A stretch of 21,267 nt of DNA, taken from a virus. Positions 5,894 to 20,810 of the stretch are shown here, piece after piece. The notes beneath the pieces were generated by a model. That model did not search any database. It saw only the letters and a list, made by a program, of their open reading frames with translations, and was not told the origin of the DNA. Position 1 is the first letter of the stretch; the number at the start of each line of letters is the position of its first letter. The stretch covers positions 1-21,267 of IMG/VR virus record IMGVR_UViG_3300021425_000226, one strand, 5' to 3'. A program made the position numbers and the translations under genes.

Positions 5894-8499
5894 GGGGCTT
5901 TCTCCGCAAGTTCTTGTAGCTCTGTTTGATACTCTGCCATATCTTCTGGCGAAAGCGTAATCAACGAGCACCGACAGTTGATTGTTTCTTCAGGGCGTCC
6001 GTTCGGGTCTTGCGGATACATCAAGTCCACGCTCGGAAATTTCTGATCATGTTTTACCACTGTGCCGTTCAATTGGCGGTGTGAATCTCTGACTTCATCG
6101 TCTTGAGCTGTGACCCATGCCTTTTGCAAATCGGGAATTGCCTTTGCAGCAGTCTGCATGAGTGAACCTGAACCAATTGACGTTGCTGTCAGAACTTCTG
6201 TCCGAGCAATCGTGTTTGCTCTGCTTGCAGCAATGCCTTTCTTGACCAAGTTTCTGGATACCTCATCGACTGACAGATTGTTCTTGATGCCGTCTTCGAT
6301 GACTCGCAACACTGAATTGAGAGATGTGTCTCCGATTGTTTTGAATGTTCTAAGCCCACGAGCTGAAAGTGTCGTTTCTCGTGCTGCTTTATCTGTGAGT
6401 CGAGCTGCTTCGAGCGATTGTCTTGCAGTCTTGTCGAAGATGAGTTCCAGTTGGAGACTATATCCAATGTCCATCGAGTCAGAGAGAATGCTGTCATATA
6501 ACTTGGTGTATTGCTTCTCAAGAGAATCGAACATCTTCTGCAAACGCTTGCGATATTCTGCGAGCTTCGGCAATCCTGCTTTAATTCCCTTCTTACCTTT
6601 GAGAGCTTTGACGGCCATTTCTGTTTGGTCAGCGAACAGGTCAAGGCTCCACTTGTACATCTTCGGCATATCTTTTTTGAGATGAGCCGTCATGGAGTCA
6701 TTGTTTGCTTTGATTTGAGCAGAGTACCTACCCATTTCTTTTGTTTGACTAGCATTCACTTCGAGCGGTTGCTCAACTGGCATTTCAACCGGAGCAGATG
6801 GAGGTGCTTCGTCAGCTTTTTCTTTTTCGTCAGCAGCCTTCATTTGGCCTTGAACCTTCTCGCACCAGCGTTTGCCAGCGTCACCGCCCCATAGCTTCCA
6901 AGCTATTGCACCTGCTGTCGGTTCACCGTTTTGTTCTTTGTTGTCGCCTTCTCCATCGTGTCTTGCAAAATAGCTCACCATGCGCTGGATAGTATCCGGT
7001 AACACAGTGCGACGATTCTTCAATTGAACTGCTCTAGCAACGCCGACTTCTGTTCCACCTCGACCGTATTTCTGACGCCACTCAAGCCCAAGAGCTGCTT
7101 CGTCGGCAACATCCTGTGGTGGCTTGAAATCAATATGTTCATAAGCAACGGGGATGGCTTTATATTCCAAATCAGAGCCGTCATCCTCATCGACAGCTTT
7201 CACGTCTGGGGCTGACAGTCCCATGAACGGCAAAGCTGGCATTGAACCGGGGGTTGTATCGCCTCCATCCAAGGCTGGCAGTCCGAAGATTTGTGCTCGC
7301 ACTTCATTCAATGTGTGTGTTGACAGAAGCATCGTTGCCATTTCAGCTTGAGAGCGCAAGTCTTCTTGCAAGAACGAAACTTCAGAAGTGTCGAAGCATA
7401 CCTGCTCGTCTTGCGAAAGCATTCCACATTTTCTGAAATGACGAGTCAAAGCAGAAGCAATTGCGTTCGCAGTAGGAATCAGAGCTGTTTGCCAGAAATA
7501 CTTCAAGCTCATCTTGTGTTCTTCGGAGCCGAGTGAGCCAGCTTCTTGCAGCGACACAACGTGCTTCGGAATGTGCAATGTGTTTAGTATTGTCTCACGA
7601 TTCATACGAACCAAATCGACGATGCCTTGGTCTGCAATCTTGTGGTCAGCGGCATTCCACTTCACGCCCTTCGGAAGCAACATCGTTCGACGTTGGTTGC
7701 GTCTCCCTGTGTGAGCCATCTCGAAGGAGCGGAGCAACCTGAGAACTGATTGCTCATTCGCTGCTTGATCCATCTCAAGAATACCTTGAGGCGTAGCACC
7801 TTTTAGATAGAACGAGTTCAAATAATCTTGCGAATAACGGTTGAATAGAATTGAACGACGACCGGGTACAAAGGGGCTTAAACCCCACACTGGACTTGAT
7901 GGATTCGGTCTTCGACAATGAGCCATTTCATCCAGACCAATCGAAATGCCCTTGGTCAAGCCGACGATGATTTCTTCGGAGTCGGGATAGACAATGTAGC
8001 CTTTCGGCAAATGCTGCTGGTCAAAGTCATATTGAACTCGGTCGAAGCTAATATGATAAAGCTCTTTAGTTGCTTTTGCGTGATAGATAAAAGAGTTTCC
8101 ACCGAGCACATAGTCACAAGCTAGTGAGTATTTAAGTTCGGTTCCGTCTGACCATTTGTTTGGATTGTCGAGCAAGCTCATTACTGGATGATATTGAACT
8201 GGCTTCTCAATCGACTGACCATCTTCGACCGTCTTGCGAATGACTTGAAACGGAAGCAGAGAGATTGGCTGTGCGAAAGCATCAACTGTGATGAACACCC
8301 AGTCTTCTGAGAAGAATAATGCCTTCAAGTTCTGACTGGTCATGAACGCTTTCGTCTCGACTGCCCACACGCTGTTGTATGGTTCGTCAGATGGAAGTCC
8401 GTTCGGATCGATGTACCTCAGTCCATAATCACGAGAGCTTCGCCTAGTCTTTCTTTTCGCTGGCTCTCCTGACGATGACTGCTCCTTTCGCTTTTGCAT
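5890..8499 (-). CDS. Portal protein fused to MuF-type head morphogenesis domain
   Basis: The gene encodes 869 residues from the ATG at 8499 (GAGG upstream). A TTG at 8538 and an ATG at 8514 are alternatives, and the overlap with the CsrA-like gene makes the exact start uncertain. Residues ~30-410 form an HK97-type portal, with PVMSLLDNPNKWSDGTEL, DYVLGGNSFIY, WGLSPF and the LHIPKHVV region. Residues ~450-555 are a separate domain common in phage head operons (ALGLEWRQKYGRGG, VGVARAVQLKNR, SYFARHDGE, IAWKLWGGDAGKRW). After a Pro/Glu-rich linker, ~590-869 are a MuF head-morphogenesis domain, with IARTEVLTATS, the DDEVRDSHRQLNG motif and the ending PEETINCRCSL. The portal is the dodecameric packaging vertex and MuF is a minor head protein injected or bound at that vertex. 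These are usually separate genes, so this is a natural triple fusion. Confidence 0.9.
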   Translation of the reverse strand: MQKRKEQSSSGEPAKRKTRRSSRDYGLRYIDPNGLPSDEPYNSVWAVETKAFMTSQNLKALFFSEDWVFITVDAFAQPISLLPFQVIRKTVEDGQSIEKPVQYHPVMSLLDNPNKWSDGTELKYSLACDYVLGGNSFIYHAKATKELYHISFDRVQYDFDQQHLPKGYIVYPDSEEIIVGLTKGISIGLDEMAHCRRPNPSSPVWGLSPFVPGRRSILFNRYSQDYLNSFYLKGATPQGILEMDQAANEQSVLRLLRSFEMAHTGRRNQRRTMLLPKGVKWNAADHKIADQGIVDLVRMNRETILNTLHIPKHVVSLQEAGSLGSEEHKMSLKYFWQTALIPTANAIASALTRHFRKCGMLSQDEQVCFDTSEVSFLQEDLRSQAEMATMLLSTHTLNEVRAQIFGLPALDGGDTTPGSMPALPFMGLSAPDVKAVDEDDGSDLEYKAIPVAYEHIDFKPPQDVADEAALGLEWRQKYGRGGTEVGVARAVQLKNRRTVLPDTIQRMVSYFARHDGEGDNKEQNGEPTAGAIAWKLWGGDAGKRWCEKVQGQMKAADEKEKADEAPPSAPVEMPVEQPLEVNASQTKEMGRYSAQIKANNDSMTAHLKKDMPKMYKWSLDLFADQTEMAVKALKGKKGIKAGLPKLAEYRKRLQKMFDSLEKQYTKLYDSILSDSMDIGYSLQLELIFDKTARQSLEAARLTDKAARETTLSARGLRTFKTIGDTSLNSVLRVIEDGIKNNLSVDEVSRNLVKKGIAASRANTIARTEVLTATSIGSGSLMQTAAKAIPDLQKAWVTAQDDEVRDSHRQLNGTVVKHDQKFPSVDLMYPQDPNGRPEETINCRCSLITLSPEDMAEYQTELQELAEKAP

Positions 8500-8656
8500 C
8501 TGCTTGTTCCTCATCCTGCAAGACTCCGAGTCTTTCAATCTTCACGTCTTTTGGAGCGTCAAGGACGATGCGAGCACCACGGCTTGCGCTTACGATAATC
8601 ACTTGGTCACCGACTTTGAGTGCCTCACCTTTTTTAAGTTGCACGACCAGTGGCAT
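8444..8656 (-). CDS. CsrA-like small protein between terminase and portal
   Basis: The gene encodes 70 residues from the ATG at 8656, a start chosen because its N-terminus MPLVVQLKKGEALKVGD aligns with the first residues of CsrA/RsmA. GGAG lies 11 bases upstream. An ATG at 8698 inside the large terminase end gives a 14-residue longer form. CsrA features present are the GE pair, the IGD-like VGD, a Gly before RI, and APKDVKIER, which matches the CsrA core APKDV plus the RNA-contacting Arg44 position. Differences are a gap of about three residues between beta strands, Leu/Lys at the usual Arg6/Arg7, and Leu after the final Arg instead of Glu. An extra charged tail of ~25 residues follows. CsrA dimers bind GGA motifs in mRNA leaders. 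A different small beta protein such as an FlbT-like phage protein remains possible. Confidence 0.6.
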   Translation of the reverse strand: MPLVVQLKKGEALKVGDQVIIVSASRGARIVLDAPKDVKIERLGVLQDEEQADAKAKGAVIVRRASEKKD

Positions 8657-8687
8657 CTCGTCTCTGCTCCGATTTGTAATGATTGAG

Positions 8688-10605: not shown

Positions 10606-10634
10606 ATTTTGTGCTAGTGCCATCGAACAGTCAA
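10606..10634 (-). promoter_or_regulatory. Likely promoter of the packaging/head operon
   Basis: On the minus strand TTGACT and CAAAAT are separated by exactly 17 bases. The -35 matches five of six consensus bases and the -10 four of six. It sits just upstream of the small terminase SD and start, at the divergence point with the plus-strand gene at 10653. The transcript would begin about 17 bases before the start codon. Confidence 0.5.
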
Positions 10635-10636
10635 AT

Positions 10637-10655
10637 CATCAAGGAGGCACCGATG
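10637..10655 (+). promoter_or_regulatory. SD hairpin (AGGCA loop), bulged variant
   Basis: CATC (10637-10640) can pair with GATG (10652-10655), and GG (10643-10644) with CC (10650-10651), around an AGGCA loop; AA is bulged. The GGAGG ribosome site and the start codon are both inside. It is the weakest of the four similar hairpins in this window because of the bulge. Confidence 0.4.
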
Positions 10656-10991
10656 AACGAATTGTGGTCGTCAAAGGTATATTTAATCGACGAACAGAAC
10701 TGCCCTGAGAAGCTCGCTGCTCAATGCGGTAAAGACTTAGACATTGAACATGTTCAAGAATTGATGGGTCTTTCTAAAGAAGAAATGGAAAGCAGGCTGG
10801 CGAATGCTTTGCTGGAAGTTGAACGAGCCAAGAAAGAAGTTTCAGAGAATCCCAAGTACATTCAAGCAAAATCCGATGTGAAATATTTCGATGACGCTTT
10901 GAAAGAGAAGGTCAATCCACTGAAGGCGGTTGCTGCTCTCATGCTTTGGAAGCTGGAAGAAACTGATGGCGAATCTGATTGGGAATCGTAA
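10653..10991 (+). CDS. Small hypothetical protein, first gene of a plus-strand pair
   Basis: The gene encodes 112 residues starting MNELWSSKVYLIDEQ. The start is set by AAGGAGG five bases before the ATG. The protein is acidic and helical, with a Glu/Lys-rich stretch around residues 45-75 (MGLSKEEMESRLANALLEVE) that could be a coiled coil. It has no membrane segment and I recognise no family. It diverges from the small terminase gene and overlaps the next plus-strand gene by 26 bases, so the two are probably translated from one message. The orientation opposite to the late genes suggests early or accessory expression. Function is unknown. Confidence 0.75.
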   Translation: MNELWSSKVYLIDEQNCPEKLAAQCGKDLDIEHVQELMGLSKEEMESRLANALLEVERAKKEVSENPKYIQAKSDVKYFDDALKEKVNPLKAVAALMLWKLEETDGESDWES

Positions 10992-11364
10992 AGACATCAA
11001 AGTCTCATCCAGCGAGCGACAAGAGCTTCTGCGGCTTTCTGAAGAAGGTCGGCTTCGAGACTTTTACAAATACTTGATGGAAAGAATCAACGAATACGAG
11101 ATTGCGATTTGGGAAGACAAATTCTTCTCAGCAATGACTGGCGAAGAAATGAGCATGAACCATCTCGTGTGTATGCTTCGCAATGATTGTCGTGAGAATA
11201 GTGGCGTCATTATTAGCAGTCAGTTGTCCGGCAAGCTCACGACTTGGTTCTTAAAGGCTTTGGTTTCTTGCTGTGTGCAGTCCGGTGAACTTGAACTTGA
11301 CGCGACAGTCTTGCTAAGTCGGATTGATTCTCTGATTGAGCATAATCCTCAGCCATTGCGTTAA
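10966..11364 (+). CDS. Hypothetical protein, second gene of the plus-strand pair
   Basis: The gene encodes 132 residues starting MANLIGNRKDIKVSS. The ATG at 10966 has GGAAGAA upstream and lies inside the end of the preceding gene; an earlier TTG-type start is less likely. The protein is mostly helical, with several Cys in the C-terminal half (CMLRNDCRENSG and LVSCCVQSG) but no clear metal-binding spacing. I recognise no family. Its last 128 bases overlap, tail to tail, the winged-helix gene on the minus strand (11237-11608), and no terminator is visible between the converging genes. Confidence 0.65.
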   Translation: MANLIGNRKDIKVSSSERQELLRLSEEGRLRDFYKYLMERINEYEIAIWEDKFFSAMTGEEMSMNHLVCMLRNDCRENSGVIISSQLSGKLTTWFLKALVSCCVQSGELELDATVLLSRIDSLIEHNPQPLR

Positions 11365-11608
11365 GTGCTTCAATGTTCATCATGTAGACGTATGCGTTCA
11401 GGTCTGTCTGTCCGACCACAATCACCAGTTTGAGCGACACAAGTTCTTTCAAAGCAACTCGTACTGTCTTTGCTTCTGAGCCAATCAGGTCGGCAAACTC
11501 GCTGACTTTCCAATGTTGCTTGGCAAGATACGATGACATAGTGACCAAGCACAGCTTGGCAACTTTCCCGCAAGGTATCGAAATCGACTTCCGAACTAGG
11601 TCAAGCAT
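11237..11608 (-). CDS. Winged-helix DNA-binding protein
   Basis: The gene encodes 123 residues from an ATG with GGAAG about 10 bases upstream. Residues ~25-65 read as a helix-turn-helix followed by a wing: HWKVSEFADLIGSEAKTV, then LKELVSLKLVIVVG. This is the pattern of small phage regulators and of initiator N-termini. The C-terminal ~45 residues are polar and basic (KKPKPLRTKS at the end) and probably disordered. It closes the replication block, 28 bases after the preceding stop at 11637. It may be a regulator or a replication accessory. The coding end overlaps the convergent plus-strand gene, so transcription of one may interfere with the other. Confidence 0.65.
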   Translation of the reverse strand: MLDLVRKSISIPCGKVAKLCLVTMSSYLAKQHWKVSEFADLIGSEAKTVRVALKELVSLKLVIVVGQTDLNAYVYMMNIEALNAMAEDYAQSENQSDLARLSRQVQVHRTAHSKKPKPLRTKS

Positions 11609-11636
11609 GGTGTGTTCTTCCTTTGGAGGAAGCGTA

Positions 11637-12032
11637 TCACAAATTCTCAGAATAATGTACGCAGTGCTTTACAATGTAGCGTGGGTCTTTGTATTCCGGA
11701 TGAATGACGTGAATGAACCAGAACGGTTCATCTCTCTTTCCGTTCTCGCAAGAGACTTCCTTGATTGCAGCTTCAGTTCCGAGATGAACAAAGCCTGCTT
11801 CGACGAAGTTGTATATTCTTGTCTGAACCCATGACATTGCTTTGTCACAATCGCCAGCGTCCATTGGAGGCACTTCCAGCTTGATTGTCCACATCTGAGC
11901 GAGAGAGAGCTTCTGCTCTTGCGTCATCTCTCGAACGACATCCCAAAGTATAACCTTGCGAGGCTGACCCTTCTTGAGCTGTCCCTCGAAGTGAGCAAGC
12001 AGATTCTTCTGTTCAATCTTGTCGTGGTTCAT
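11637..12032 (-). CDS. Hypothetical protein of the replication block
   Basis: The gene encodes 131 residues from an ATG that overlaps the upstream stop (ATGA), with GGAGATGAA as ribosome site. It has a basic N-terminal third, then a mixed alpha/beta body rich in Trp and aromatic residues (PFWFIHVIHPEYKDPRY). No catalytic or metal motif is evident and I do not recognise the family. Translational coupling to the 179-residue protein before it and to the initiator suggests a replication or early-control role. Confidence 0.65.
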   Translation of the reverse strand: MNHDKIEQKNLLAHFEGQLKKGQPRKVILWDVVREMTQEQKLSLAQMWTIKLEVPPMDAGDCDKAMSWVQTRIYNFVEAGFVHLGTEAAIKEVSCENGKRDEPFWFIHVIHPEYKDPRYIVKHCVHYSENL

Positions 12033-12568
12033 TTCATCTCCAAAGAAAGCGGCTGCTGATGATTAGATGAATCGAGCTGTGCTTTATTGCTAACTGGATT
12101 CAGCAGCGTCTGGGTGCTTGTCTTTGAGCTTCTCATTGCATCTTCTGCCAAGCTCTTTAGTTCATACTTCAGGTCACGCAAGTTTCGAGGGTCTTCACTT
12201 CTCATATGCAAGTCATACCAGCGACCAGCTTTCATGAGCAGACTGTACGCTTCTGGGTCAGCTTCAGACGCTCGGTCTTGTCCGTCTCGCTGTGGAAATC
12301 GAAGCAGAGCAATTGCACGATTAGCGAGCGATTGAATCTCAGTCTTGTCGCTTCTGGTAGCTTGTTGGTTGAATGCAAGAATTTCGTTCACAGACGGCCA
12401 ATGGTTATCCAAGCTGTGATGCTTGATTGCTGTGATGATTTGCTGCTCTGACAGTTTACCTAGTAGCTCTGCTGCATAAAACTCAAGCTGACTAGACTTT
12501 AATGGTGCGGCTTGTATCAATTCTCGCCCATGCTGAAGCAAGTTCACCATTACTTCGCTGAACTTCAT
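12029..12568 (-). CDS. Possible helicase-loading or replication accessory protein
   Basis: The gene encodes 179 residues. The ATG at 12568 follows GGAGGCA with good spacing and lies inside the initiator gene end (77-base overlap). The N-terminal ~70 residues have the form of small helical replication-accessory domains: FYAAELLGKLSEQQIITAI, then HWPSVNEIL, resembling the helix bundle and (F/W)P-x-x-x-E-I pattern of phage helicase-loader or G39P-type proteins. The C-terminal half is polar and Ser-rich. There is no Walker motif, so it is not a DnaC-like ATPase. Its place right after an origin-carrying initiator matches that of lambda P. The assignment is tentative. Confidence 0.5.
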   Translation of the reverse strand: MKFSEVMVNLLQHGRELIQAAPLKSSQLEFYAAELLGKLSEQQIITAIKHHSLDNHWPSVNEILAFNQQATRSDKTEIQSLANRAIALLRFPQRDGQDRASEADPEAYSLLMKAGRWYDLHMRSEDPRNLRDLKYELKSLAEDAMRSSKTSTQTLLNPVSNKAQLDSSNHQQPLSLEMK

Positions 12569-13454
12569 CTGATGCCTCCTTTGCTGTTTGCTTGTCTTCG
12601 ATGTGCTTGATTTGCGAGTTCGTCATCGTGACTCCAGTGTGGTAGCTTCTCCTGACTTCTGTCAGGTCACGGAAGCACCACTCCAGACTGTGGCCTTTGG
12701 AAATAAACCATGCTTTGTTCATCATGACATAGTGCTGAACCAAGGCTCGTCCCTCATCGACTCCAACTTCCTCGTAAATTTTCTTTGCCCATCGGTTCGC
12801 TTCCTTTCCACGGGTAGGTTCGAATCCGTACTTGTTCGAATAGGCAAGCGCATATGCCTCAAAGATAAGCGAACCGCCTGTTGGCTCTTTGCTGGCTTTG
12901 CGGGCGTTGTCAACTTGATTCTGAGCTTTGACGGCTGGAACTCCTGTCGAGTTCTCACGTTGACAGACGACAGGAGACGCAGTGGCGTCAGCCGCTGAGA
13001 CTGTATTAAATACTAAATCTAGTTCAATTTGATCTAGTTCAATTGATCTAGTTCCATGTGCAATGGTTGCACTAGCCTCCTGCAATGGTTGCACTAGGGC
13101 TTGTGCAATGGTTGCACTAGGTGACTCGTTTTTTTGTTGTGATTGCTCTTTGCTTAACCATTGAGCAACTGCGTTGATCTTGATTAGATTAGGTTTCATC
13201 TCAGCTTTGCGAGAGCGTATTGATATAATATTAAGCGATTCGAGAGTGCCGAACGCTGAAGTCACAGACCGAGGTGAAATGTTACATGCTTGAGCAATGT
13301 TGCTTCTTGATTCGAAGCATTGTCCTCGTAGTCCAGCTCGATAGATGATTCGATTCAGCACCAAGAACTCAGTCGGCTGGAGATTCAGCTCCCAAATCTT
13401 CGTTGGAATTTGAGTGAACGAATATTCAATCTCAGAAACAAATTCATCAGACAC
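12492..13454 (-). CDS. Replication initiator carrying an internal origin
   Basis: The gene encodes 320 residues from a GTG at 13454 with a perfect AAGGAGG six to seven bases upstream. Residues ~15-100 are a winged helix (LQPTEFLVLNRIIYRAG, SRSNIAQACNISPRSVTSAF, then a wing ending IKIN). Residues ~105-190 are low-complexity and encoded by the DNA repeats described below. Residues ~200-290 are a domain found at the end of many phage replication proteins (LIFEAYALAYSNKYGFEP, KIYEEVGVDEGRALVQHY, KGHSLEWCFRDL). This three-part plan, with iterons in the linker, equals that of lambda O-type initiators. The protein would bind the iterons, melt nearby AT-rich DNA and recruit the host helicase. The SD is embedded in a hairpin holding a fourth binding-like site, which suggests autoregulation. 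Confidence 0.75.
   Translation of the reverse strand: MSDEFVSEIEYSFTQIPTKIWELNLQPTEFLVLNRIIYRAGLRGQCFESRSNIAQACNISPRSVTSAFGTLESLNIISIRSRKAEMKPNLIKINAVAQWLSKEQSQQKNESPSATIAQALVQPLQEASATIAHGTRSIELDQIELDLVFNTVSAADATASPVVCQRENSTGVPAVKAQNQVDNARKASKEPTGGSLIFEAYALAYSNKYGFEPTRGKEANRWAKKIYEEVGVDEGRALVQHYVMMNKAWFISKGHSLEWCFRDLTEVRRSYHTGVTMTNSQIKHIEDKQTAKEASDEVQRSNGELASAWARIDTSRTIKV
13017..13058. repeat. Three-copy direct repeat beside the iterons
   Basis: ATCTAGTTCAATT occurs at 13017-13029 and 13032-13044, with a third copy, ATCTAGTTCCATG, at 13046-13058. The spacing is 15 and 14 bases. It lies inside the initiator coding region, directly next to the iterons and to AT-rich sequence (12995-13020). It could be a second protein-binding set or part of the unwinding element of the origin. 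Confidence 0.8.
13059..13120. repeat. Origin iterons, three copies of TGCAATGGTTGCACTAG
   Basis: Exact 17-base copies lie at 13059-13075, 13081-13097 and 13104-13120, with periods of 22 and 23 bases, about two helical turns. Each contains the inverted repeat TGCAA-TGG-TTGCA. They sit in the variable linker of the initiator gene, as in lambdoid origins, and are followed by T-rich sequence at 13128-13137. This is the most likely replication origin in the window. Confidence 0.85.
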
Positions 13455-13458
13455 AAAA

Positions 13459-13488
13459 AGCCTCCTTGCTATGGTTGCAATGGAGGCT
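13459..13488 (-). promoter_or_regulatory. SD-sequestering hairpin with fourth initiator site
   Basis: On the minus strand AGCCTCC pairs with GGAGGCT and TTGC with GCAA, an 11-bp stem with one bulged A and a 7-base loop. The GGAGG ribosome site of the initiator gene is wholly in the 3' arm and a run of T follows. It can act as a translational block or as an attenuator. Within it, 13467-13479 (TGCTATGGTTGCA on the plus strand) differs from the iteron core by one base, so the initiator could also bind the DNA here. Confidence 0.65.
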
Positions 13489-13538
13489 CAAAGGCGGTAG
13501 TTTCGCTTTGAACATGCCACTTCAACTGGTTGTTCCAC

Positions 13539-13570
13539 TCCCGATGATTCGCAGTCAGTCGGGATTTTTT
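13539..13570 (+). terminator. Plus-strand terminator opposite the initiator leader
   Basis: TCCCGA (13539-13544) and TCGGGA (13559-13564) form a 6-bp stem with a 14-base loop, followed by six T. No plus-strand gene precedes it. In the minus direction no T-run follows, so it does not stop the initiator message. It may end an antisense or small RNA, or protect the downstream region from stray plus-strand transcription. Confidence 0.6.
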
Positions 13571-13589
13571 ATTTTGATACTGCTGCTCT

Positions 13590-13618
13590 GTTTACTATAT
13601 CGCCATCAAAATGTAAAC
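13590..13618 (-). promoter_or_regulatory. Inverted repeat with possible -10 before the initiator gene
   Basis: GTTTAC (13590-13595) and GTAAAC (13613-13618) are perfect inverted arms 17 bases apart. On the minus strand TATAGT (13594-13599) lies at one arm and could be a -10 box, but no good -35 is found. A regulator bound at the arms would cover it. The leader from here to the GTG would be about 130 bases. Confidence 0.35.
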
Positions 13619-13637
13619 TAGCTACATAATCAATCAC

Positions 13638-14399
13638 TTACACACCTTTAATCGGTGATCTCATGATTGGATTAATGTCATATAGATTCTCATTTTTGCG
13701 TTTTACCTGAGAAGCACCTGAGTCTGTTCTAATTATTTTAGAACCCCATTTTTTCCGTAATGCCTCGAGATTCTTTTTCTCACGTTCTAGTGTGCGATAA
13801 GTAGCACAACCGCCTGTATTCTTGTGCATCTTTGCAAAGTAATGAATAAAGTTGAATCTCAAGACTTTGCGATATTTATTGAGTTGCTGAAGCGTCATGT
13901 CAAAGTCTTCTTTGAGCGGAAGGTTTTCGTCATACCTTATTCCATGCTCCAGAATATGAGCTTGAAATGGACCACCTATGTACGCATTGAAAGAGAATGG
14001 AGTTGCCTCACGATATGAACCTTTGTCGTCAACGCAGTTAACGCCCCAGAATCTAGCTCCCGACTCCTTAGCCATGATGAACGCATTTTCAACGAATTGA
14101 TAGAACTCAGCTTCTGTCATATCTCTTGAGATATTTCGTTCATATCGAGCAAAGCAAGAGATGTCATCGTCTAGTAACAGCAGGTTTTTGTTCGGTGAAT
14201 TGTCGATAATCCAGTTTCTAATCCGACAAAGGTTGCCCTGTGCAGAATCAGGGGCGACCATAATTTTATGCCCTTCTGCTAAATATTCTTCAGCCTCGGA
14301 TTCGGCAACGACATATGTACACTGGGACAAATACTTTTGAGTGAAGCACCCTTTTGCTCTTTTGTAAGATGGAGCAAATATCACAAAATTATTTTCCAT
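13638..14399 (-). CDS. GT-A-like phage glycosyltransferase
   Basis: The gene encodes 253 residues. The ATG at 14399 lies inside the end of the ParB-like gene (11-base overlap), with GAGG upstream. Features of GT-A glycosyltransferases are an N-terminal FVIFAPSYKRA, a LCRIRNWIIDN helix, and the metal/sugar-nucleotide triad LLLLDDDIS near residue 77. Further on are FNAYIGGPFQ, an acidic LPLKEDFDMTL and a late HKNTGG. This order resembles the small phage glycosyltransferases associated with DNA base hypermodification (the TET/JBP-associated type). No TET/JBP oxygenase, thymidylate-synthase-like or hydroxymethylase gene is in the window. The nature of the acceptor is therefore open: DNA base, host surface glycan or protein. 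Base composition is more AT-rich than the flanking head genes, which hints at separate acquisition. Confidence 0.65.
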   Translation of the reverse strand: MENNFVIFAPSYKRAKGCFTQKYLSQCTYVVAESEAEEYLAEGHKIMVAPDSAQGNLCRIRNWIIDNSPNKNLLLLDDDISCFARYERNISRDMTEAEFYQFVENAFIMAKESGARFWGVNCVDDKGSYREATPFSFNAYIGGPFQAHILEHGIRYDENLPLKEDFDMTLQQLNKYRKVLRFNFIHYFAKMHKNTGGCATYRTLEREKKNLEALRKKWGSKIIRTDSGASQVKRKNENLYDINPIMRSPIKGV

Positions 14400-15048
14400 C
14401 TTTCAACCTCGACAAATATGTTCCACCATCAATTACCCGTCCGATGCCAGTTGACCATTTTTCGCCTGTGCGACGAGTTGACGCAACTGTCTGCAAATCA
14501 AAGTGCTCTCGTGCAGCTAACCAATCAATGTCGTTGTTAAATAATAATACAACGTAATTATTAGATTCTCCTATGTATTCAGAGAATTTTACTTCACCGA
14601 CAACTTCGTCGTCTTTCACATCATCATCTTGAACGTCATCATCAAGCTGCATTTTGTCGAAATCAAATTCATCGAATCCAGTCAGGCTCGTGTCGAAGCC
14701 GAGGTCTTTGAGTTCAGCAAATTCTAATGCGAGCAATTCATTGTCCCATTCAGCGAGTTCAGCCATGCGGTTGACAGAGATTCTGAACGCTTTGATTTGT
14801 GCGTCTGATAAGTCATCTGCCAAGACAACTGGAACTTCTTTGAGGCCAAGTTTTTGTGCGGCCTTCAATCGAAGATGACCGTCAACAACAAGTCCATCGG
14901 ACTTTGCAACAATCGGCACTCGAAAGCCGAACTCTTTGATGGCTGATGCAACTTGGTCAACTGCTTGGTCATTTTTGCGTGGGTTGCGAGCATATGGAAT
15001 GAGCTTGTCAATCGCCCAGCTCTCAACTTTCAGCTTCTTGCTGCTCAT
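14389..15048 (-). CDS. ParB/Srx-fold protein with a novel C-terminal domain
   Basis: The gene encodes 219 residues from an ATG with AAGGAG seven bases upstream. Residues ~10-100 are a ParB/Srx-fold N-terminal domain: LIPYARNPRKNDQAVDQV, GFRVPIVAKS, and the ligand-binding VDGHLRLKAAQKLG. A very acidic linker follows (DDDVQDDDVKDDE, ~135-150). Residues ~150-219 are a compact domain, SNNYVVLLFNNDIDWLAA, then IGRVIDGGTYL, that I do not recognise as a methylase or nuclease. Phage proteins of this fold act as DNA-binding or phosphotransfer enzymes and are often paired with DNA-modifying genes. Overlap with the glycosyltransferase gene argues for a shared pathway. Plasmid partition is unlikely, since no ParA is present. 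Confidence 0.75.
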   Translation of the reverse strand: MSSKKLKVESWAIDKLIPYARNPRKNDQAVDQVASAIKEFGFRVPIVAKSDGLVVDGHLRLKAAQKLGLKEVPVVLADDLSDAQIKAFRISVNRMAELAEWDNELLALEFAELKDLGFDTSLTGFDEFDFDKMQLDDDVQDDDVKDDEVVGEVKFSEYIGESNNYVVLLFNNDIDWLAAREHFDLQTVASTRRTGEKWSTGIGRVIDGGTYLSRLKDGK

Positions 15049-15185
15049 AATAACTCCTTGATTTGGATCAAACTATAAAAGAAAAATAGCAAAGTTATTC
15101 AATTGCTGCAAAATAATGCTCAAGTTTTTCTGGAATCTGTCGTTAAGTTATCATAGTTGCGATGACGCAACCAATGAGGTGTCAA
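15049..15185. promoter_or_regulatory. Divergent control region between the ParB-like and small-gene units
   Basis: These 137 bases are AT-rich and separate two divergent units. On the minus strand TTGAAT and TATAGT lie 19 bases apart (15072-15102), a somewhat wide promoter for the ParB-like gene. On the plus strand TATCAT (15150-15155) is a fair -10 with only a weak T-rich -35 18 bases upstream. No clear operator palindrome is seen. Confidence 0.4.
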
Positions 15186-15434
15186 ATGAAAATTCTTTTA
15201 ACTCGTTCAGCACTTAGTATCTGTAACCTTGCTCGTCTTGAAGCCGGAAAGGCAGATTTTATCACATTGCTTTGGAATGAAGAAACACAGGAATTGTCAC
15301 TCAATGACGCAGGAGACATAGCGATTCCTTCCGGCACAACACGCTCAATAGCATTGGAAATGCGATGGGATGACGAATGCCTTCAAAATGTAATTCAATG
15401 TTTTATTTCACAAGTCACAAAAGAGAGGTGCTGA
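15186..15434 (+). CDS. Small hypothetical protein, first of a five-gene unit
   Basis: The gene encodes 82 residues starting MKILLTRSALSICNL. The ATG at 15186 is preferred because GAGGTG lies about 6 bases upstream; an in-frame start eight codons earlier lacks one. The composition looks like a small alpha/beta protein, with FITLLWNEETQELSL suggesting beta strands. It has no membrane segment and I recognise no family. The next gene begins directly after its stop codon. Confidence 0.7.
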   Translation: MKILLTRSALSICNLARLEAGKADFITLLWNEETQELSLNDAGDIAIPSGTTRSIALEMRWDDECLQNVIQCFISQVTKERC

Positions 15435-15848
15435 ATGATTACGATTGAACAACTCAAAAAATTTGCAATCGGAACTAACATCGAGAAGAAAGTCAATGAA
15501 TTGCTGCCTATACACTGGATATATGCAAAATATCTCGTCTCGCATATGCAAGAAGATACAGAGCAGGAAATGAACAGAGTGTGGACAAGAATGCCACGCA
15601 ATCTAAAGCCAAGTCTTGATGATAAAAAGGCAAGACTGATTCCAGAACTTATAAGCAGATTCATCACTGTTCACAGAAATCAGAAAGATATGATTGAAGT
15701 TTTTATCATGTGGGTTTTGGATGACGATTCCGAAACTTGGCATCCAATTACTGTGTTGAGCAATAGACAAGACGCAGAAGAATTTATGCACGAACACGAA
15801 GAAACATACGTTTATACAAATGTGACAGTAAAAAAACCTAGTACATAA
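15435..15848 (+). CDS. Hypothetical protein
   Basis: The gene encodes 137 residues. Its ATG immediately follows the previous stop (TGAATG), with GAGAGGTG as ribosome site. It has a basic, helical N-terminal two thirds and a beta-rich C-terminus (WHPITVLSNRQDAEEF, then TYVYTNVTV). I do not recognise it. Tight spacing ties it to the genes on both sides. Confidence 0.7.
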   Translation: MITIEQLKKFAIGTNIEKKVNELLPIHWIYAKYLVSHMQEDTEQEMNRVWTRMPRNLKPSLDDKKARLIPELISRFITVHRNQKDMIEVFIMWVLDDDSETWHPITVLSNRQDAEEFMHEHEETYVYTNVTVKKPST

Positions 15849-15860
15849 AGGACAAAGAAA

Positions 15861-16073
15861 ATGAACGCATTTGATAACTTTCTCGATATCATCTTTGACC
15901 ACGTTGAAATCAATGGATTCACACTTCCGCCAAGCGAAGTGCTTTTGAAGACACGACCAGAATATTACGACTACCTGATGCAAGCGTGGCTTGCTTCAAT
16001 TGAAGAGTTGCAGGAGGAAATTCAATGCCAGCGAAAGCCAAAAGCCAAGAAGAAATACAAGAAGAAATTATGA
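15861..16073 (+). CDS. Small hypothetical protein with a basic tail
   Basis: The gene encodes 70 residues, with an ATG behind AAAGGAC. The first ~50 residues are acidic and helical (MNAFDNFLDIIFDHVEI). The last ~15 are almost entirely Lys and Arg (KPKAKKKYKKKL), which could bind nucleic acid. Its last 49 bases overlap the helix-turn-helix gene in another frame; the overlapping stretch is purine-rich in both. Confidence 0.65.
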   Translation: MNAFDNFLDIIFDHVEINGFTLPPSEVLLKTRPEYYDYLMQAWLASIEELQEEIQCQRKPKAKKKYKKKL

Positions 16074-16201
16074 CAGTCACTCAATACGCTGCAAAGCGTG
16101 GTGTCTCACCTCAGTACATTCGCAGATTGATAAAAGAAAAAAAAATAAAAGCAGTCAAAGTCAACGAGCGACTTTGGCTGATAAAGGAGGAATCGAAATG
16201 A
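16025..16201 (+). CDS. Small MerR/excisionase-type helix-turn-helix protein
   Basis: The gene encodes 58 residues from an ATG with AGGAGG seven bases upstream. After a ~15-residue charged leader comes MTVTQYAAKRGVSPQYIRRL, the classic helix-turn-helix opening (YAAKRGVSPQYIRR). This is followed by IKEKKIKAVKVNERLWLI, a short wing of two strands. This pattern is shared by HTH_17, excisionase and MerR-like DNA-binding proteins. Because of its length it is easy to miss. Its stop overlaps the start of the next gene (ATGA). It could regulate this unit or serve as a recombination directionality factor. No integrase is in the window, so local regulation is more likely. Confidence 0.85.
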   Translation: MPAKAKSQEEIQEEIMTVTQYAAKRGVSPQYIRRLIKEKKIKAVKVNERLWLIKEESK

Positions 16202-16455
16202 ATACTGCTGTGAAATTGGCGATTGAGTTCGCCAAAATTAGAATGAACGACCGAGGTTTCAAACGTGAGCCTCAGTGGTCGTTACTCGTTCAAAAGGCTC
16301 GTCTCATCGCAGCGAGGAATGACCACGAAATGGCGTGGCAGACTGGGGCATCAGACGCCAGTGAAGAGTTGACGTTTGGCGATGGAAGTCGCCTCGTCAT
16401 TCACAATCCAGCTCAAGTCGCATTCGCTGGATATGCTGATGTCTTAAATGATTGA
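16198..16455 (+). CDS. Hypothetical protein, last gene of the unit
   Basis: The gene encodes 85 residues starting MNTAVKLAIEFAKIR. The ATG at 16198 overlaps the previous stop (ATGA) and has AAAGGAGG upstream. It has a helical N-terminus, Trp/Gln-rich middle and a beta-like end (DGSRLVIHNPAQVAF). I do not recognise it. A strong terminator follows 22 bases after the stop. Confidence 0.75.
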   Translation: MNTAVKLAIEFAKIRMNDRGFKREPQWSLLVQKARLIAARNDHEMAWQTGASDASEELTFGDGSRLVIHNPAQVAFAGYADVLND

Positions 16456-16477
16456 ATTAAATACCATTAAACTGAAG

Positions 16478-16501
16478 CCGCTCCAGATGAGCGGTTTTTT
16501 T
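16478..16501 (+). terminator. Rho-independent terminator of the small-gene unit
   Basis: CCGCTC-CAGAT-GAGCGG forms a perfect 6-bp stem and is followed by seven T. It ends the plus-strand unit beginning at 15186. In the minus direction the hairpin lacks a T-run, so it would not efficiently terminate the converging lysis operon. Confidence 0.9.
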
Positions 16502-16529
16502 GTGCGTATATTGCATGTTCTTCTTTTGA

Positions 16530-16973
16530 TTACGGTTGCTTATCTGTACCTGACTTGTCGCTTGACTTCAAGTTGATCATCTTCTCCAGCGTCAGACAGT
16601 CCGCAAAAAGAAGCTCGACGTATTTCGGCCACATAAGCTCAAGCTCATCTTCGCTGTGCATTGATGGAGCCATAAGTCCGAGACTGGTGTGCTCCAGACC
16701 AAGGACGCAGTGACCCAGTTCGTGGAACACAAGCTCACGTTTTTGATATTCGCCCATGTCTTTCCATTTCGTTTCGTTCAGTAAGATGCCGAAGCTCGAC
16801 ACGCAGTATCCAGCGATGTTTTCTTCAAGTCGTGCGAAGTGCGTTCGGATTGGAAATACGAAACAACCACGCTTGTTGGCTTCTCGATAGAACTCTTCAG
16901 TCTGCTTCTCGAAGCTCGGTGCGGATTGACATGCAGTGATTAGCAAAATTAGCAAAGATGAAATAATGAGCAT
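16530..16973 (-). CDS. Lipoprotein zinc metallopeptidase of the lysis cassette
   Basis: The gene encodes 147 residues, with an ATG behind AGGAGG. The N-terminus MLIISSLLILLITACQS is a lipoprotein signal with lipobox ITAC and acylation Cys15. The peptidase motif is HELGHCVLGLEH (His84, Glu85, His88, His95), followed by a possible Met-turn in LGLMAPSMHSED. The spacing HEXXH-x3-G-xx-H is one residue longer than the usual metzincin HEXXH-xx-G-xx-H. Similar HELGHC lipoproteins occur in phages and Gram-negative bacteria. As the last gene of the lysis block it could cut envelope proteins or crosslinked peptide, or act as an outer-membrane partner like a spanin. Its actual substrate is unknown. Confidence 0.8.
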   Translation of the reverse strand: MLIISSLLILLITACQSAPSFEKQTEEFYREANKRGCFVFPIRTHFARLEENIAGYCVSSFGILLNETKWKDMGEYQKRELVFHELGHCVLGLEHTSLGLMAPSMHSEDELELMWPKYVELLFADCLTLEKMINLKSSDKSGTDKQP

Positions 16974-16986
16974 GAGGTGCCTCCTC
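16974..16986 (-). promoter_or_regulatory. SD hairpin (AGGCA loop) before the lipoprotein gene
   Basis: On the minus strand GAGG-AGGCA-CCTC is a perfect 4-bp stem with a 5-base loop ending exactly at the ATG. The GGAGG ribosome site is split between the stem and the loop. It is one of four such hairpins in the window. Confidence 0.55.
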
Positions 16987-17007
16987 TGTGCTCAAACATA
17001 ACACAAC

Positions 17008-17274
17008 TTAGAGCAGCTTCTTCCAAGTCGAAATGAGCGTTCTGTGCTCATCAATACACGCTCGCTTGTCAGCGACGATTGCCCCACCGCTCAGTCTTTG
17101 CAGCAAATACACAAGGCGATAATCAACTTGCTTTCGTTCTTCGAGCTTAATAGCAACCGTTAGCATCTCTTGTGCTAATGACTTAACGTCTTCTGGCGAG
17201 CGAGCGAAAGGACCACAACAGTAGGTCATCATCTGTGCAATATCTCTAAGCTCTTTGCTCAAGACGTGCTTCAT
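17008..17274 (-). CDS. Small hypothetical protein of the lysis cassette
   Basis: The gene encodes 88 residues from an ATG overlapping the amidase stop (ATGA), with GGTGAAG nearby. It is a helical, charged protein with a Cys pair in MTYCCGPFA and another Cys near the end. It has no signal peptide or membrane segment, so it is not a typical spanin or holin. I do not recognise it. Coupling to the amidase suggests a lysis-timing or antiholin-like cytoplasmic role, but this rests on position only. Confidence 0.65.
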   Translation of the reverse strand: MKHVLSKELRDIAQMMTYCCGPFARSPEDVKSLAQEMLTVAIKLEERKQVDYRLVYLLQRLSGGAIVADKRACIDEHRTLISTWKKLL

Positions 17275-17885
17275 CGCTTCACCAAAAAGTCTTTGATGCC
17301 CATCGCAAGACCTAGCGCATACGCTTCAGTCGTCTCTGCTGGAATGCTGCCACCGAATCGTGCAGCGTCAATAAAGAAGCCTTCCGTCAAGCAAGCTGGA
17401 ATGCTGGTCGGACAACCCTTGAGCACACCGAGCGATTGCTTTTTGATTCCTCTGTTCATAAATCCTAGACGTTCAACCAACCGAGCTTGTATTGCCTTAG
17501 CCAGAACTTCGTCGTCAGGCATTGCTTGAGAGTCGATGCAAGTCTCTGTGCCTTGAACCAGTCCGTTGAAAGCATTGTGGTGAATGCTTACAAATACGTC
17601 AGCTTTGACTCCACCAGCTCGCTTGCCTTTGTTGCGAAGCGATACCTGCTCACGTTCGTTCTCGTAATTGAAGACGTAGACCTTAGCTCCAAGCGTCTCC
17701 AGAATCTCAGCAGCTCGATATGCTGTGGCCTTGTTGAGCTTGTGTTCAGTCGTGCCATTTCCAGTTGCTCCAGCATCGAACAGTGATGTTGTGTTCCACC
17801 CATGACCAACATCAAGCGCAATCGTTTTTCCTTGCAGAACCTTTGTCAGAATCGGCTGTTCGCATAGCTCGCAATTTTCTGCCAT
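17271..17885 (-). CDS. Endolysin, N-acetylmuramoyl-L-alanine amidase (Amidase_3)
   Basis: The gene encodes 204 residues from the ATG at 17885, preferred because GGAGG lies 10 bases upstream. Longer in-frame starts lack a site or overlap the membrane gene entirely. The Amidase_3 zinc site is complete: IALDVGHGW (His28), GTTEHKLN (Glu47), VSIHHNAF (His102) and CLTEGFF with catalytic Glu168. It cleaves the amide bond between muramic acid and the stem peptide. No signal peptide is present, so release depends on a holin. An N-terminal CELC pair (Cys5, Cys8) precedes the fold and is unusual. Overlap of 74 bases with the membrane-protein gene supports one cassette. Confidence 0.92.
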   Translation of the reverse strand: MAENCELCEQPILTKVLQGKTIALDVGHGWNTTSLFDAGATGNGTTEHKLNKATAYRAAEILETLGAKVYVFNYENEREQVSLRNKGKRAGGVKADVFVSIHHNAFNGLVQGTETCIDSQAMPDDEVLAKAIQARLVERLGFMNRGIKKQSLGVLKGCPTSIPACLTEGFFIDAARFGGSIPAETTEAYALGLAMGIKDFLVKR

Positions 17886-17988
17886 GTCGGATTGCCCTCC
17901 ATTCATTGAAAAAAAGTACCGGAAGCACGATGAGAATGCAGAACACGAAACAAATAAAGATGGCGATGTCTTTGATAAGATTAAACAA
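17812..17988 (-). CDS. Small single-span membrane protein, candidate holin
   Basis: The gene encodes 58 residues from a TTG at 17988, which follows GGAGGCAC closely; GTG and TTG starts further upstream are weaker. Residues ~5-27 are one hydrophobic helix (IKDIAIFICFVFCILIVLP and neighbours), followed by a strongly basic cytoplasmic tail (NEWRAIRHGRKLRAMR). Position directly before the endolysin and one-helix topology suit a small holin or pinholin, or an inner-membrane spanin-like subunit. Start choice and function are both tentative. The end overlaps the amidase gene in another frame. Confidence 0.6.
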   Translation of the reverse strand: MFNLIKDIAIFICFVFCILIVLPVLFFNEWRAIRHGRKLRAMRTADSDKGSARKNDCA

Positions 17989-18059
17989 AGTGCCTCCAGA
18001 ATTTTGTTGCAACTGATGTTTGTTTGTGCAAAAAGCATGATTCACCTTACCACAATTCA

Positions 18060-18074
18060 ATCGGAGGCACCGAT
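18060..18074 (+). promoter_or_regulatory. SD hairpin (AGGCA loop) before the recombination operon
   Basis: ATCGG-AGGCA-CCGAT is a perfect 5-bp stem with a 5-base loop. It ends at the base before the ATG at 18075. GG of GGAGG is in the stem and AGG in the loop. It is the most regular member of the family of four. Confidence 0.65.
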
Positions 18075-18308
18075 ATGTTCGAGGATAGCATTATCACCAG
18101 CGACAACGCTGGAGCATTTCTGACCGCATTTCAACTGATTCAAGACGCTCTTATGAAATCTTGGATTGCGCTTGATTCCGAAGACTACGGAAGCGAACAA
18201 GAGATTCTGTTCGCACTAAGGCAGAACAAAAAGCTGATTGCTCAATGCAAGAAAATTATGGCTGATGACCAGCGAACGCTGGCGGTGGTGCGCAGTGAAC
18301 GTCACTGA
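18075..18308 (+). CDS. Small hypothetical protein, first gene of the recombination operon
   Basis: The gene encodes 77 residues starting MFEDSIITSDNAGAFL. The ATG at 18075 follows GGAGG in the hairpin and supersedes an earlier in-frame start at 18024. It is an acidic helical protein (FQLIQDALMKSWIAL and QEILFALRQNKKLIAQ). I do not recognise it. It overlaps the RecE-like gene by 14 bases and diverges from the lysis cassette across an 86-base gap (17989-18074). I could not find a convincing promoter in that gap. Confidence 0.7.
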   Translation: MFEDSIITSDNAGAFLTAFQLIQDALMKSWIALDSEDYGSEQEILFALRQNKKLIAQCKKIMADDQRTLAVVRSERH

Positions 18309-19056
18309 ATATCGCCAACATCCGGCTATGAGCTATTCGAAGCTCAAGCCATACCTCAAATCACCATTGCATGGACTGACTTATGAGCCGCCTGCTGAGT
18401 CAGCAGCACTGCGCTTCGGGTCAGCAGTTGACCTTGCCCTCAAAGGTCAGATTGATGAAGTGCTCGTCAATCCGTTCGAGGACGGTCGCACTAAGGCGGC
18501 CAAAGAATGGAAAGCTGAGAACGTCGGAAAGCTGGTCATGACTCAATCGGAGATGGAAAAAGTTCTCGACTGTGCTGCTGCTGTGCTCGCTCATCCAGCA
18601 GTTAAGGCAATGAGCATCGAGATGATGTACTCAGACATTCCATTGTTCGGAAACTTCAACGGAGTTGACCTGAAGGGTCTTCCAGATTGGTTCTTCGCTG
18701 GAACCGTCATCGACCTGAAGACGACTGGCAATGCGGTTGATGCCGCTTCATTTGCCAAGACTGTCGACAATTTTCACTATGACTTGCAAGCAGCAGTCTA
18801 TTGCGAGCTGGCTCGTCAAGCTGGTGAAAGTTGCGTCGATTTTTATTGGATTGTCGTTGAGTCAGACAGGCCGCATGACGTAGCCGTCTTCAAGGCGAGC
18901 GACCGCATTCTGGAAGTCGGCAAAGCAAAGATGAATCATGCTCTTGCTAACTTTGCTAAAACGAAATCTGGAGCACACCTCGGAACAAGCGAACATATGC
19001 AAGTGCTTGAAATGCCGACTTGGTATGGAAAGAGCTTTCAACTGGACGAGTTTTGA
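18295..19056 (+). CDS. RecE-like PD-(D/E)XK exonuclease
   Basis: The gene encodes 253 residues from a GTG at 18295 (GGTGG upstream). This start places the conserved opening TEYRQHPAMSYSKLKPYLKS at the N-terminus, as in RecE/exodeoxyribonuclease VIII C-terminal domains. Conserved features are the LRFGSAVDLAL helix, the metal-site Asp in LKGLPDWFF, and VIDLKTTGNA supplying Asp and Lys of the PD-(D/E)XK site. After these comes the YDLQAAVYCELA helix with the Gln typical of RecB-family nucleases. In LRFGSAVDLAL the usual His is Asp. It would degrade 5' ends of double-stranded DNA to give single strands for the annealase in the next gene. Pairing with Bet confirms the role. Confidence 0.85.
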   Translation: MNVTEYRQHPAMSYSKLKPYLKSPLHGLTYEPPAESAALRFGSAVDLALKGQIDEVLVNPFEDGRTKAAKEWKAENVGKLVMTQSEMEKVLDCAAAVLAHPAVKAMSIEMMYSDIPLFGNFNGVDLKGLPDWFFAGTVIDLKTTGNAVDAASFAKTVDNFHYDLQAAVYCELARQAGESCVDFYWIVVESDRPHDVAVFKASDRILEVGKAKMNHALANFAKTKSGAHLGTSEHMQVLEMPTWYGKSFQLDEF

Positions 19057-19087
19057 AGTAAAGCTCTCAGTCTAACAATTTCATACA

Positions 19088-19102
19088 GTAGGAGGCACCT
19101 AT
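19088..19102 (+). promoter_or_regulatory. SD hairpin (AGGCA loop) before the annealase gene
   Basis: TAGG-AGGCA-CCTA is a 4-bp stem, extended by one G-U pair, with a 5-base loop; its 3' arm overlaps the A of the ATG at 19101. It follows the RecE-like stop by 31 bases. It belongs to the same family as the hairpins at 16974, 18060 and, more weakly, 10637. Confidence 0.55.
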
Positions 19103-19859
19103 GACACAACTTGTGACACAAGAACTTGATGTCGCACTGCTCAAAAAAACAGTTGCAAAAGATGCTACGGATTCCGAGTTCGGATTGTTCTTGCAGATTT
19201 GCAAGAAGACTGGCCTTGACCCTTTCGCTCGTCAGATATTCTTCGTCAAACGTGGAGGCGTTGGACAAACAACGCTTTCGATTGATGGCTTTCGACTGGT
19301 AGCTGAACGCACTGGACGCTACGAGGGACAGACCGGACCACATTGGTGCGGGACTGATGGCGAATGGAAAGACGTTTGGCTTTCACACGAGCCTCCAGCA
19401 GCAGCAAAAGTCGGAGTGTATCGCACTGGATTCAGAGAGCCGCTGTTCGCAGTGGCAAACTTCAGCGCATACAATGCCAACTCTCCCATCTGGAAGAAGA
19501 TGCCAGCGTTGATGTTGGCAAAGTGTGCTGAGTCGCTTGCACTCAGACGTGCGTTTCCGATGGAACTTTCTGGCTTGTACACCACCGACGAAATGGAACA
19601 AGCAGACGTGCAACCGCCAATCAACGTCACACCACCAGCTCAACCAACTCGACTGCCGACTTTAGAGAATCCAATCATCAAAGCATTCATGAGCGTAAAT
19701 GTCACTCAACGTGACCTTGAAGCTGCTCTCGATAAGCCGATGGACAAGTGGTCTGACAATGACACAAAGGTGTTGCGTGACTGCTATCAAGCTATTCGTG
19801 GTGGCGTAAAAGCCGCTGATGCTCTTTCTAAACTCTCTTCTCTTGATGTGTTCAAATAA
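19101..19859 (+). CDS. bet: Single-strand annealing protein, Bet/RecT class
   Basis: The gene encodes 252 residues, with an ATG behind GGAGG. The protein carries the Bet signature in order: [20 protein letters not shown] (about 27-46), [20 protein letters not shown] (57-76), then [19 protein letters not shown] with [16 protein letters not shown] (about 131-166). A Pro-rich linker (~170-190) leads to a ~60-residue C-terminal helical domain, which in lambda Bet contacts SSB. It coats resected single strands and anneals complementary DNA. Its neighbours are a nuclease before it and SSB after it, the full recombination set. The gene is preceded by one of the SD hairpins. Confidence 0.95.
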
Positions 19860-20484: not shown

Positions 20485-20810
20485 ATACAATTCATCAGCC
20501 GTGGCTCGACTGGCAAAAGACTGGCATGCGACGAAATGGTAACGCATATGAATTGCGAGCGTGCCCGTTTTGCGATAGCTTGTCGCTCAGTTTACAACTT
20601 AGTGTCAACAACACAGCAGCTCGTGTCGAGTGTCGTGACTGTCTTGCCGAAGGACCTTGGTCATGGTCGCACGATCCAGACGCTGCTTTGCACGACTCAG
20701 TGGAGGCATGGAATGGATATTGTCGGACAACACGATCCAGCAAGAGAACTTTTGACCTTTGTCCAGAGCAGCGAAGCTCTGACGAGCCGACTGGCTCAAG
20801 AGATAATTGA
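20481..20810 (+). CDS. Lar-like zinc-ribbon protein
   Basis: The gene encodes 109 residues from an ATG overlapping the previous stop (ATGA). Residues ~24-80 match the Lar restriction-alleviation style of zinc ribbon: LRACPFCDS (first CxxC), then VECRDCLAEGPW (second CxxC), then a closing DSVEAWNGYCR as in the usual A-x-x-x-W-N-x-R. Lar proteins of phages modulate host type I restriction, but many relatives are simply small zinc proteins of unknown role. The last ~33 residues (RTTRSSKRTFDL onwards) are coded over the start of the next gene in another frame and may be a poorly conserved tail. Confidence 0.7.
   Translation: MNTIHQPWLDWQKTGMRRNGNAYELRACPFCDSLSLSLQLSVNNTAARVECRDCLAEGPWSWSHDPDAALHDSVEAWNGYCRTTRSSKRTFDLCPEQRSSDEPTGSRDN

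What the first reader, a model, noticed from the sequence alone, without database searches (positions are those of the whole stretch)
10637..19102. A family of start-site hairpins with invariant AGGCA loop and varying, complementary stems
Seven genes (starts 10653, 12568, 16973, 17988, 18075, 19101, 20713) share GGAGGCA as ribosome site. In four of them the CC after it pairs with GG before it and the outer pairs differ yet remain complementary: GAGG/CCTC at 16974, ATCGG/CCGAT at 18060, TAGG/CCTA at 19089, and bulged CATC-GG/CC-GATG at 10637. The 3' arm ends at or inside the start codon. The CACC following GGAGG does not extend pairing to the usual 16S anti-SD (which would favour GGAGGTG), so ribosome binding alone does not explain its conservation. 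Changing both arms together is the classic mark of selected RNA structure. Three of the four are on plus-strand (probably early) genes, including the first genes of two operons. This could be a translational operator for a phage or host RNA-binding protein.
Basis: partly seen in the sequence, partly recalled or inferred. Interest (0 to 1): 0.75.

Follow-up and report, generated by a model that had tools for sequence, protein, structure and literature searches.

The report
Phage start-site motif, hairpins doubtful

Summary
The repeated ribosome site is real. GGAGGCA occurs nine times in the window (1.8 expected). In 14 related contigs (TerL 84-92% identical) plus two more, GGAGGCAC is a lineage-specific start motif: 34 of 37 sites lie at a start at ribosome spacing, and 18 of 55 distinct GGAGG starts are GGAGGCAC against 3 of 231 elsewhere. 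Those whose genes could be placed lie in recombination, lysis, restriction-alleviation and unknown genes, none in a firmly identified virion gene.

The hairpin family is only weakly supported. Stems at 16974, 18060 and 19089 exist, and the recT leader changed both arms together (TAGG/CCTA to ACGG/CCGT). Family-level tests give P about 0.01-0.09, post hoc.

Best reading: a start-associated sequence analogous to the SAS of cluster K mycobacteriophages, acting mainly as a strong Shine-Dalgarno site. All 15 contigs also encode a CsrA-like protein between terminase and portal, a candidate, untested regulator.

The parts
10643..10650 (+). GGAGGCAC start motif of gene 10653-10991 (unknown function); TCATC 10636-10640 can pair with GATGA 10652-10656
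   Evidence: motif kept in nearly all homologous leaders read, pairing kept only in G001
18063..18070 (+). GGAGGCAC start motif of gene 18075-18308, inside ATCGGaggcaCCGAT (18060-18074)
   Evidence: motif kept in G003, G006, G010, G012; outer pairs shortened in three and lost in G012
19091..19098 (+). GGAGGCAC start motif of the RecT-like gene 19101-19859, inside TAGGaggcaCCTA (19089-19101)
   Evidence: relatives G010 and G012 have ACGGaggcaCCGT with GTG start
16977..16984 (-). GGAGGCAC start motif of a putative phage metallopeptidase (16973-16530), in a hairpin of 10 pairs spanning 16994-16967
   Evidence: no homologous leader found, so conservation untested
17990..17997 (-). GGAGGCAC start motif of short gene 17988-17812 just upstream of the lysin gene
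   Evidence: relatives keep the motif with a different stem register
12573..12579 (-).
20702..20708 (+).
8444..8656 (-). CsrA-like protein, 70 aa, between TerL and portal: candidate RNA-binding regulator
   Evidence: PF02599 28.0 bits against cut-off 27
8660..8670 (-). GGAGCAGAGAC, near-invariant ribosome site of the CsrA-like gene

Best explanation
GGAGGCAC is a start-associated sequence of this phage lineage: a strong Shine-Dalgarno core (GGAGG, five pairs with the standard 16S tail) followed by a fixed CAC, placed so that GGAGG usually ends 4-8 bases before the start codon, mainly at non-virion genes. It most likely works by recruiting the ribosome strongly, with the non-pairing CAC ending the rRNA duplex at GGAGG and setting the spacing. 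Short stems around it arise from the fixed GG and nearby C and start-codon letters and are not, as a set, selected; one leader (16973) may be truly structured. Shown: motif, placement, orientation, restriction to this lineage in the collections searched. Inferred: ribosome recruitment, role of CAC, gene class.
For: 34 of 37 distinct GGAGGCAC sites lie at a start, against 5 of 36 for GGAGGCGG/GT/GC. 18 of 55 distinct GGAGG starts carry CAC against 3 of 231 in other phages and genomes, and GGAGGT is rare. The motif stays while bases around it change in homologous leaders at 10653, 17988, 18075 and recT. It is asymmetric and follows gene direction, so it is probably read in RNA. In nine sampled genomes GGAGGCAC near ATG occurs only a few times per megabase. 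GGAGG stays about 0.6 unpaired in predicted folds.
Against: Family-level pairing tests are not flat: the GG/CC register gives P = 0.015 and SD-in-loop stems 0.009-0.076; GGAGGCAC starts fold somewhat more stably than shuffles (mean z -0.78) while two control sets do not (-0.09, -0.02). The strict conservation of CAC is not explained by pairing to a standard 16S tail. The host is unknown, so its 16S tail and its own preferences are unchecked.
Confidence: 0.6

Rival explanations
1. Translational operator hairpin: GG pairs with CC around an AGGCA loop and a phage or host protein binds the loop to block the start.
For: Stems of 4-5 pairs at 18060, 19089 and 16974; recT arms changed together between sub-lineages; permuting arms among nine leader states gives P = 0.004-0.01; family-level P = 0.015.
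Against: Stem lost with the motif kept at 10653 (four other states), in G012 at 18075 and in the phrog_6028 family; window four alone P = 0.085, one per gene family 0.05-0.09; predicted stability of recT and 18075 hairpins equals that of shuffles.
Confidence: 0.1
2. The phage CsrA-like protein, encoded in the terminase-portal operon, binds the GGA of these starts, partly in stem-loops with the start codon in the 3' arm, and turns early genes down late in infection.
For: CsrA-like gene in 15 of 15 contigs, core nearly invariant; five strands then a helix in the model, as in CsrA; stems of 5-6 pairs with the Shine-Dalgarno in the loop in 10 of 18 leaders, 3.1 expected, not in controls; its own leader GGAGCAGAGAC is near-invariant.
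Against: With families weighted equally the stem excess is P = 0.009-0.076 and by energy not significant. CsrA prefers A(N)GGA; A at -2 is 8 of 18, no clear excess. GGA is in nearly all strong ribosome sites, so it does not explain CAC. The family match is near the cut-off, and the PDB fold search did not find CsrA.
Confidence: 0.15
3. GGAGGCAC is simply the preferred ribosome site of the unknown host, borrowed by the phage.
For: It has the spacing of an ordinary Shine-Dalgarno site; host unknown.
Against: Nine sampled genomes and 58 genomes of one phylum show only a few sites per genome, though none is known to be the host; the phage's own capsid and other clear structural genes use GGAGGA or GGAGGT.
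Confidence: 0.15

Closest known systems
Start-associated sequences (SAS, GGGATAGGAGCCC) of cluster K mycobacteriophages (PMC3203893, PMC12699233)
   Same: Short asymmetric sequence holding a Shine-Dalgarno core, just upstream of starts of many unrelated genes, mostly outside the virion module, with conserved letters that cannot pair with 16S rRNA; function untested.
   Different: Other sequence (GGAGGCAC), other and unrelated phages, no 17-bp extended-SAS inverted repeats found upstream.
CsrA/RsmA translational repression at GGA in or near Shine-Dalgarno sites (PMC4066749; phage homologues PMC7366521)
   Same: GGA in the ribosome site; CsrA-like protein encoded by the phage.
T4 RegA and RegB control of early mRNA starts (PMC3014915)
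   Same: One phage factor acts on many early start sites; RegB cuts GGAG in Shine-Dalgarno sites.
   Different: No RegA or RegB family match in the 15 contigs (the controls also did not ring, so absence is not proven); RegA sites are A+U-rich and unstructured.

Membership tests
Start-associated sequences (SAS type) | Repeated sequence immediately upstream of starts of many unrelated genes | tested here: met
   34 of 37 GGAGGCAC sites at starts, about eight gene families
Start-associated sequences (SAS type) | Cluster K consensus GGGATAGGAGCCC | tested here: not met
   The motif here is GGAGGCAC; so it works like SAS but is not a cluster K SAS
Start-associated sequences (SAS type) | Extended SAS: 17-bp imperfect inverted repeats upstream | tested here: not met
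   Only one 15-nt, 73% pair at 17975-18017 in four upstream regions
Covarying translational operator hairpin | Stem kept by compensatory change across homologues | tested here: not met
   Kept in recT only; lost at 10653, 18075 (G012), phrog_6028
CsrA family (protein) | PF02599 match, five strands plus helix, conserved Arg of strand 5 | tested here: inconclusive
   28.0 bits against cut-off 27, seven of 15 contigs above it; R42 invariant and strand order fits; fold search did not return CsrA
CsrA target RNA | A(N)GGA, best in a hairpin loop | tested here: not met
   A at -2 in 8 of 18 leaders, 13 of 37 other starts of the lineage

The most novel reading that the evidence does not exclude
A phage-encoded CsrA-like protein made with the virion genes recognises the GGAGGCAC start class, helped by leader stem-loops that hold the start codon, and switches off early and lysis genes late in infection: a global translational switch in a phage.
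Probability: 0.12. Interest if true: 0.75.

Novelty: new variant of a known kind. Interest (0 to 1): 0.4.

Why it matters
Start-associated sequences have been described from one mycobacteriophage cluster and their function is open. A second, unrelated lineage with its own motif, and with a CsrA-like gene in every member, gives an independent and simple case in which the question (ribosome preference or regulator) can be tested.

Tried and rejected
Rfam: no match in the window. Searches for relatives by the 18075 protein and by the replication protein found none. Pattern scan of viral contigs for CAATTNAT...GGAGGCACY...RTG returned only this lineage plus coding or chance hits. Ribosomal protein S21 (PF01165), RegA and RegB families: no match (RegA/RegB controls did not ring). 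A shared upstream TTTTGTGCTA element is present at two kinds of leader only, and TTTGTGCAAA at the 17988/18075 divergent region. No known host: genome scan by TerL gave at best 38% in a freshwater proteobacterium bin, whose contig lacks the motif. A DNA-level operator was set aside because the motif is asymmetric and follows gene direction. I tried several structure statistics after seeing the folds, so their P values are post hoc.

Full report
What the window is. A 21,267-base viral record, a tailed phage with TerL, portal and capsid-type genes on the minus strand, a lysin, and RecE-like, RecT-like and single-strand-binding genes on the plus strand. It has no near match among isolated phages; the closest TerL there is 30% identical. 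TerL and RecT scans found 14 contigs of the same lineage, fetched in pieces, and a further scan added two.

The observation. Two of the seven do not belong: 12568 lies in codons of the overlapping replication gene and is AAAGGAAACCGCAG in relatives; 20713 lies in the VEAWNG codons of a Lar-like gene. The 16974 hairpin is larger than described, with TGAGCA/TGCTCA outside GAGG/CCTC, and is the only window leader clearly more stable than its shuffles (p about 0.003-0.01).

What is conserved. In homologous leaders GGAGGCAC stays and its neighbours change. At 10653 the states are CACCG (window, G001), CACTC (G003, G004, G012), CACAAAC (G006, G008, G010), CACTAAC (G007) and CACTCA (L120, L121); only the first can form the stem. 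At 18075 the left/right arms are ATC/GAT, TTC/GAT and ACA/GAG. In the phrog_6028 family both leaders have CACCC with no simple pairing; in one of them the upstream gene may also be read through. RecT is the exception: TAGG/CCTA with ATG in the window, G003 and G006, ACGG/CCGT with GTG in G010 and G012.

How strong is the pairing. Swapping arms among nine leader states gives P = 0.004-0.01, one per gene family 0.05-0.09, the window four 0.085. Ungrouped, 10 of 18 leaders have such a stem of five or more pairs against 3.1 expected, while other starts of the lineage (2, 6.1 expected) and other genomes (26, 28.1 expected) do not. These tests were chosen after seeing the folds and some leaders are homologous or overlap coding sequence. 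I read them as a weak hint that this start class is somewhat structured, in differing registers, not as one hairpin family.

What the motif is. 34 of 37 distinct GGAGGCAC sites are at starts at Shine-Dalgarno spacing. CAC follows GGAGG in 18 of 55 distinct starts of the lineage and 3 of 231 elsewhere (Fisher 8e-12), and T follows rarely. Clear structural starts such as capsid use GGAGGA or GGAGGT. That is the pattern described for start-associated sequences of cluster K mycobacteriophages: a Shine-Dalgarno core, extra conserved letters without 16S partners, placed outside the structural module, function unknown (PMC3203893; PMC12699233). The sequence differs and extended repeats were not found, so it works like SAS but is not that family.

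A candidate regulator. All 15 contigs carry a small CsrA-like gene between TerL and portal. In the window it is 8656-8444 minus, 28.0 bits against a cut-off of 27, and matches PHROG 8397, CsrA-like regulator. Its core is nearly invariant and its own ribosome site reads GGAGCAGAGAC. The model has five strands then a helix but the fold search did not return CsrA, perhaps because CsrA is a domain-swapped dimer (my knowledge). A link to GGAGGCAC is a hypothesis: A(N)GGA is not enriched and GGA occurs in nearly every strong ribosome site. Phage csrA alleles were surveyed earlier (PMC7366521).

Verdict. A real, lineage-specific start motif of known type in a new place; the hairpin operator is unproven and in most families contradicted by relatives.

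Noticed in passing
8444-8656 minus: CsrA-like gene between TerL and portal in all 15 contigs of the lineage, with a near-invariant leader GGAGCAGAGAC.
   Followed up: partly
17998-18062: Divergent region between the 17988 and 18075 genes holds TTTGTTTGTGCAAA, also present in relatives; possible shared promoter or operator.
   Followed up: partly
10607-10616 and L062:7059-7068: TTTTGTGCTA about 30 bases upstream of two otherwise different GGAGGCAC starts.
   Followed up: partly
L063:13560 minus, L063:17551 plus: Start leaders with perfect stems around the Shine-Dalgarno in other registers: AAAAGTG[GAGG]CACTTTT and ATCACA[AAGGAGGCAC]TGTGAT.
   Followed up: yes
13040-13120: Repeated GATCTAGTTC and GCAATGGTTGCACTAG units inside the replication gene (12492-13454), possibly origin-like repeats.
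   Followed up: no
L074:13288-15069: In G010 the RecT match is split into two pieces about 1 kb apart in one long open frame, suggesting an insertion such as an intein.
   Followed up: no
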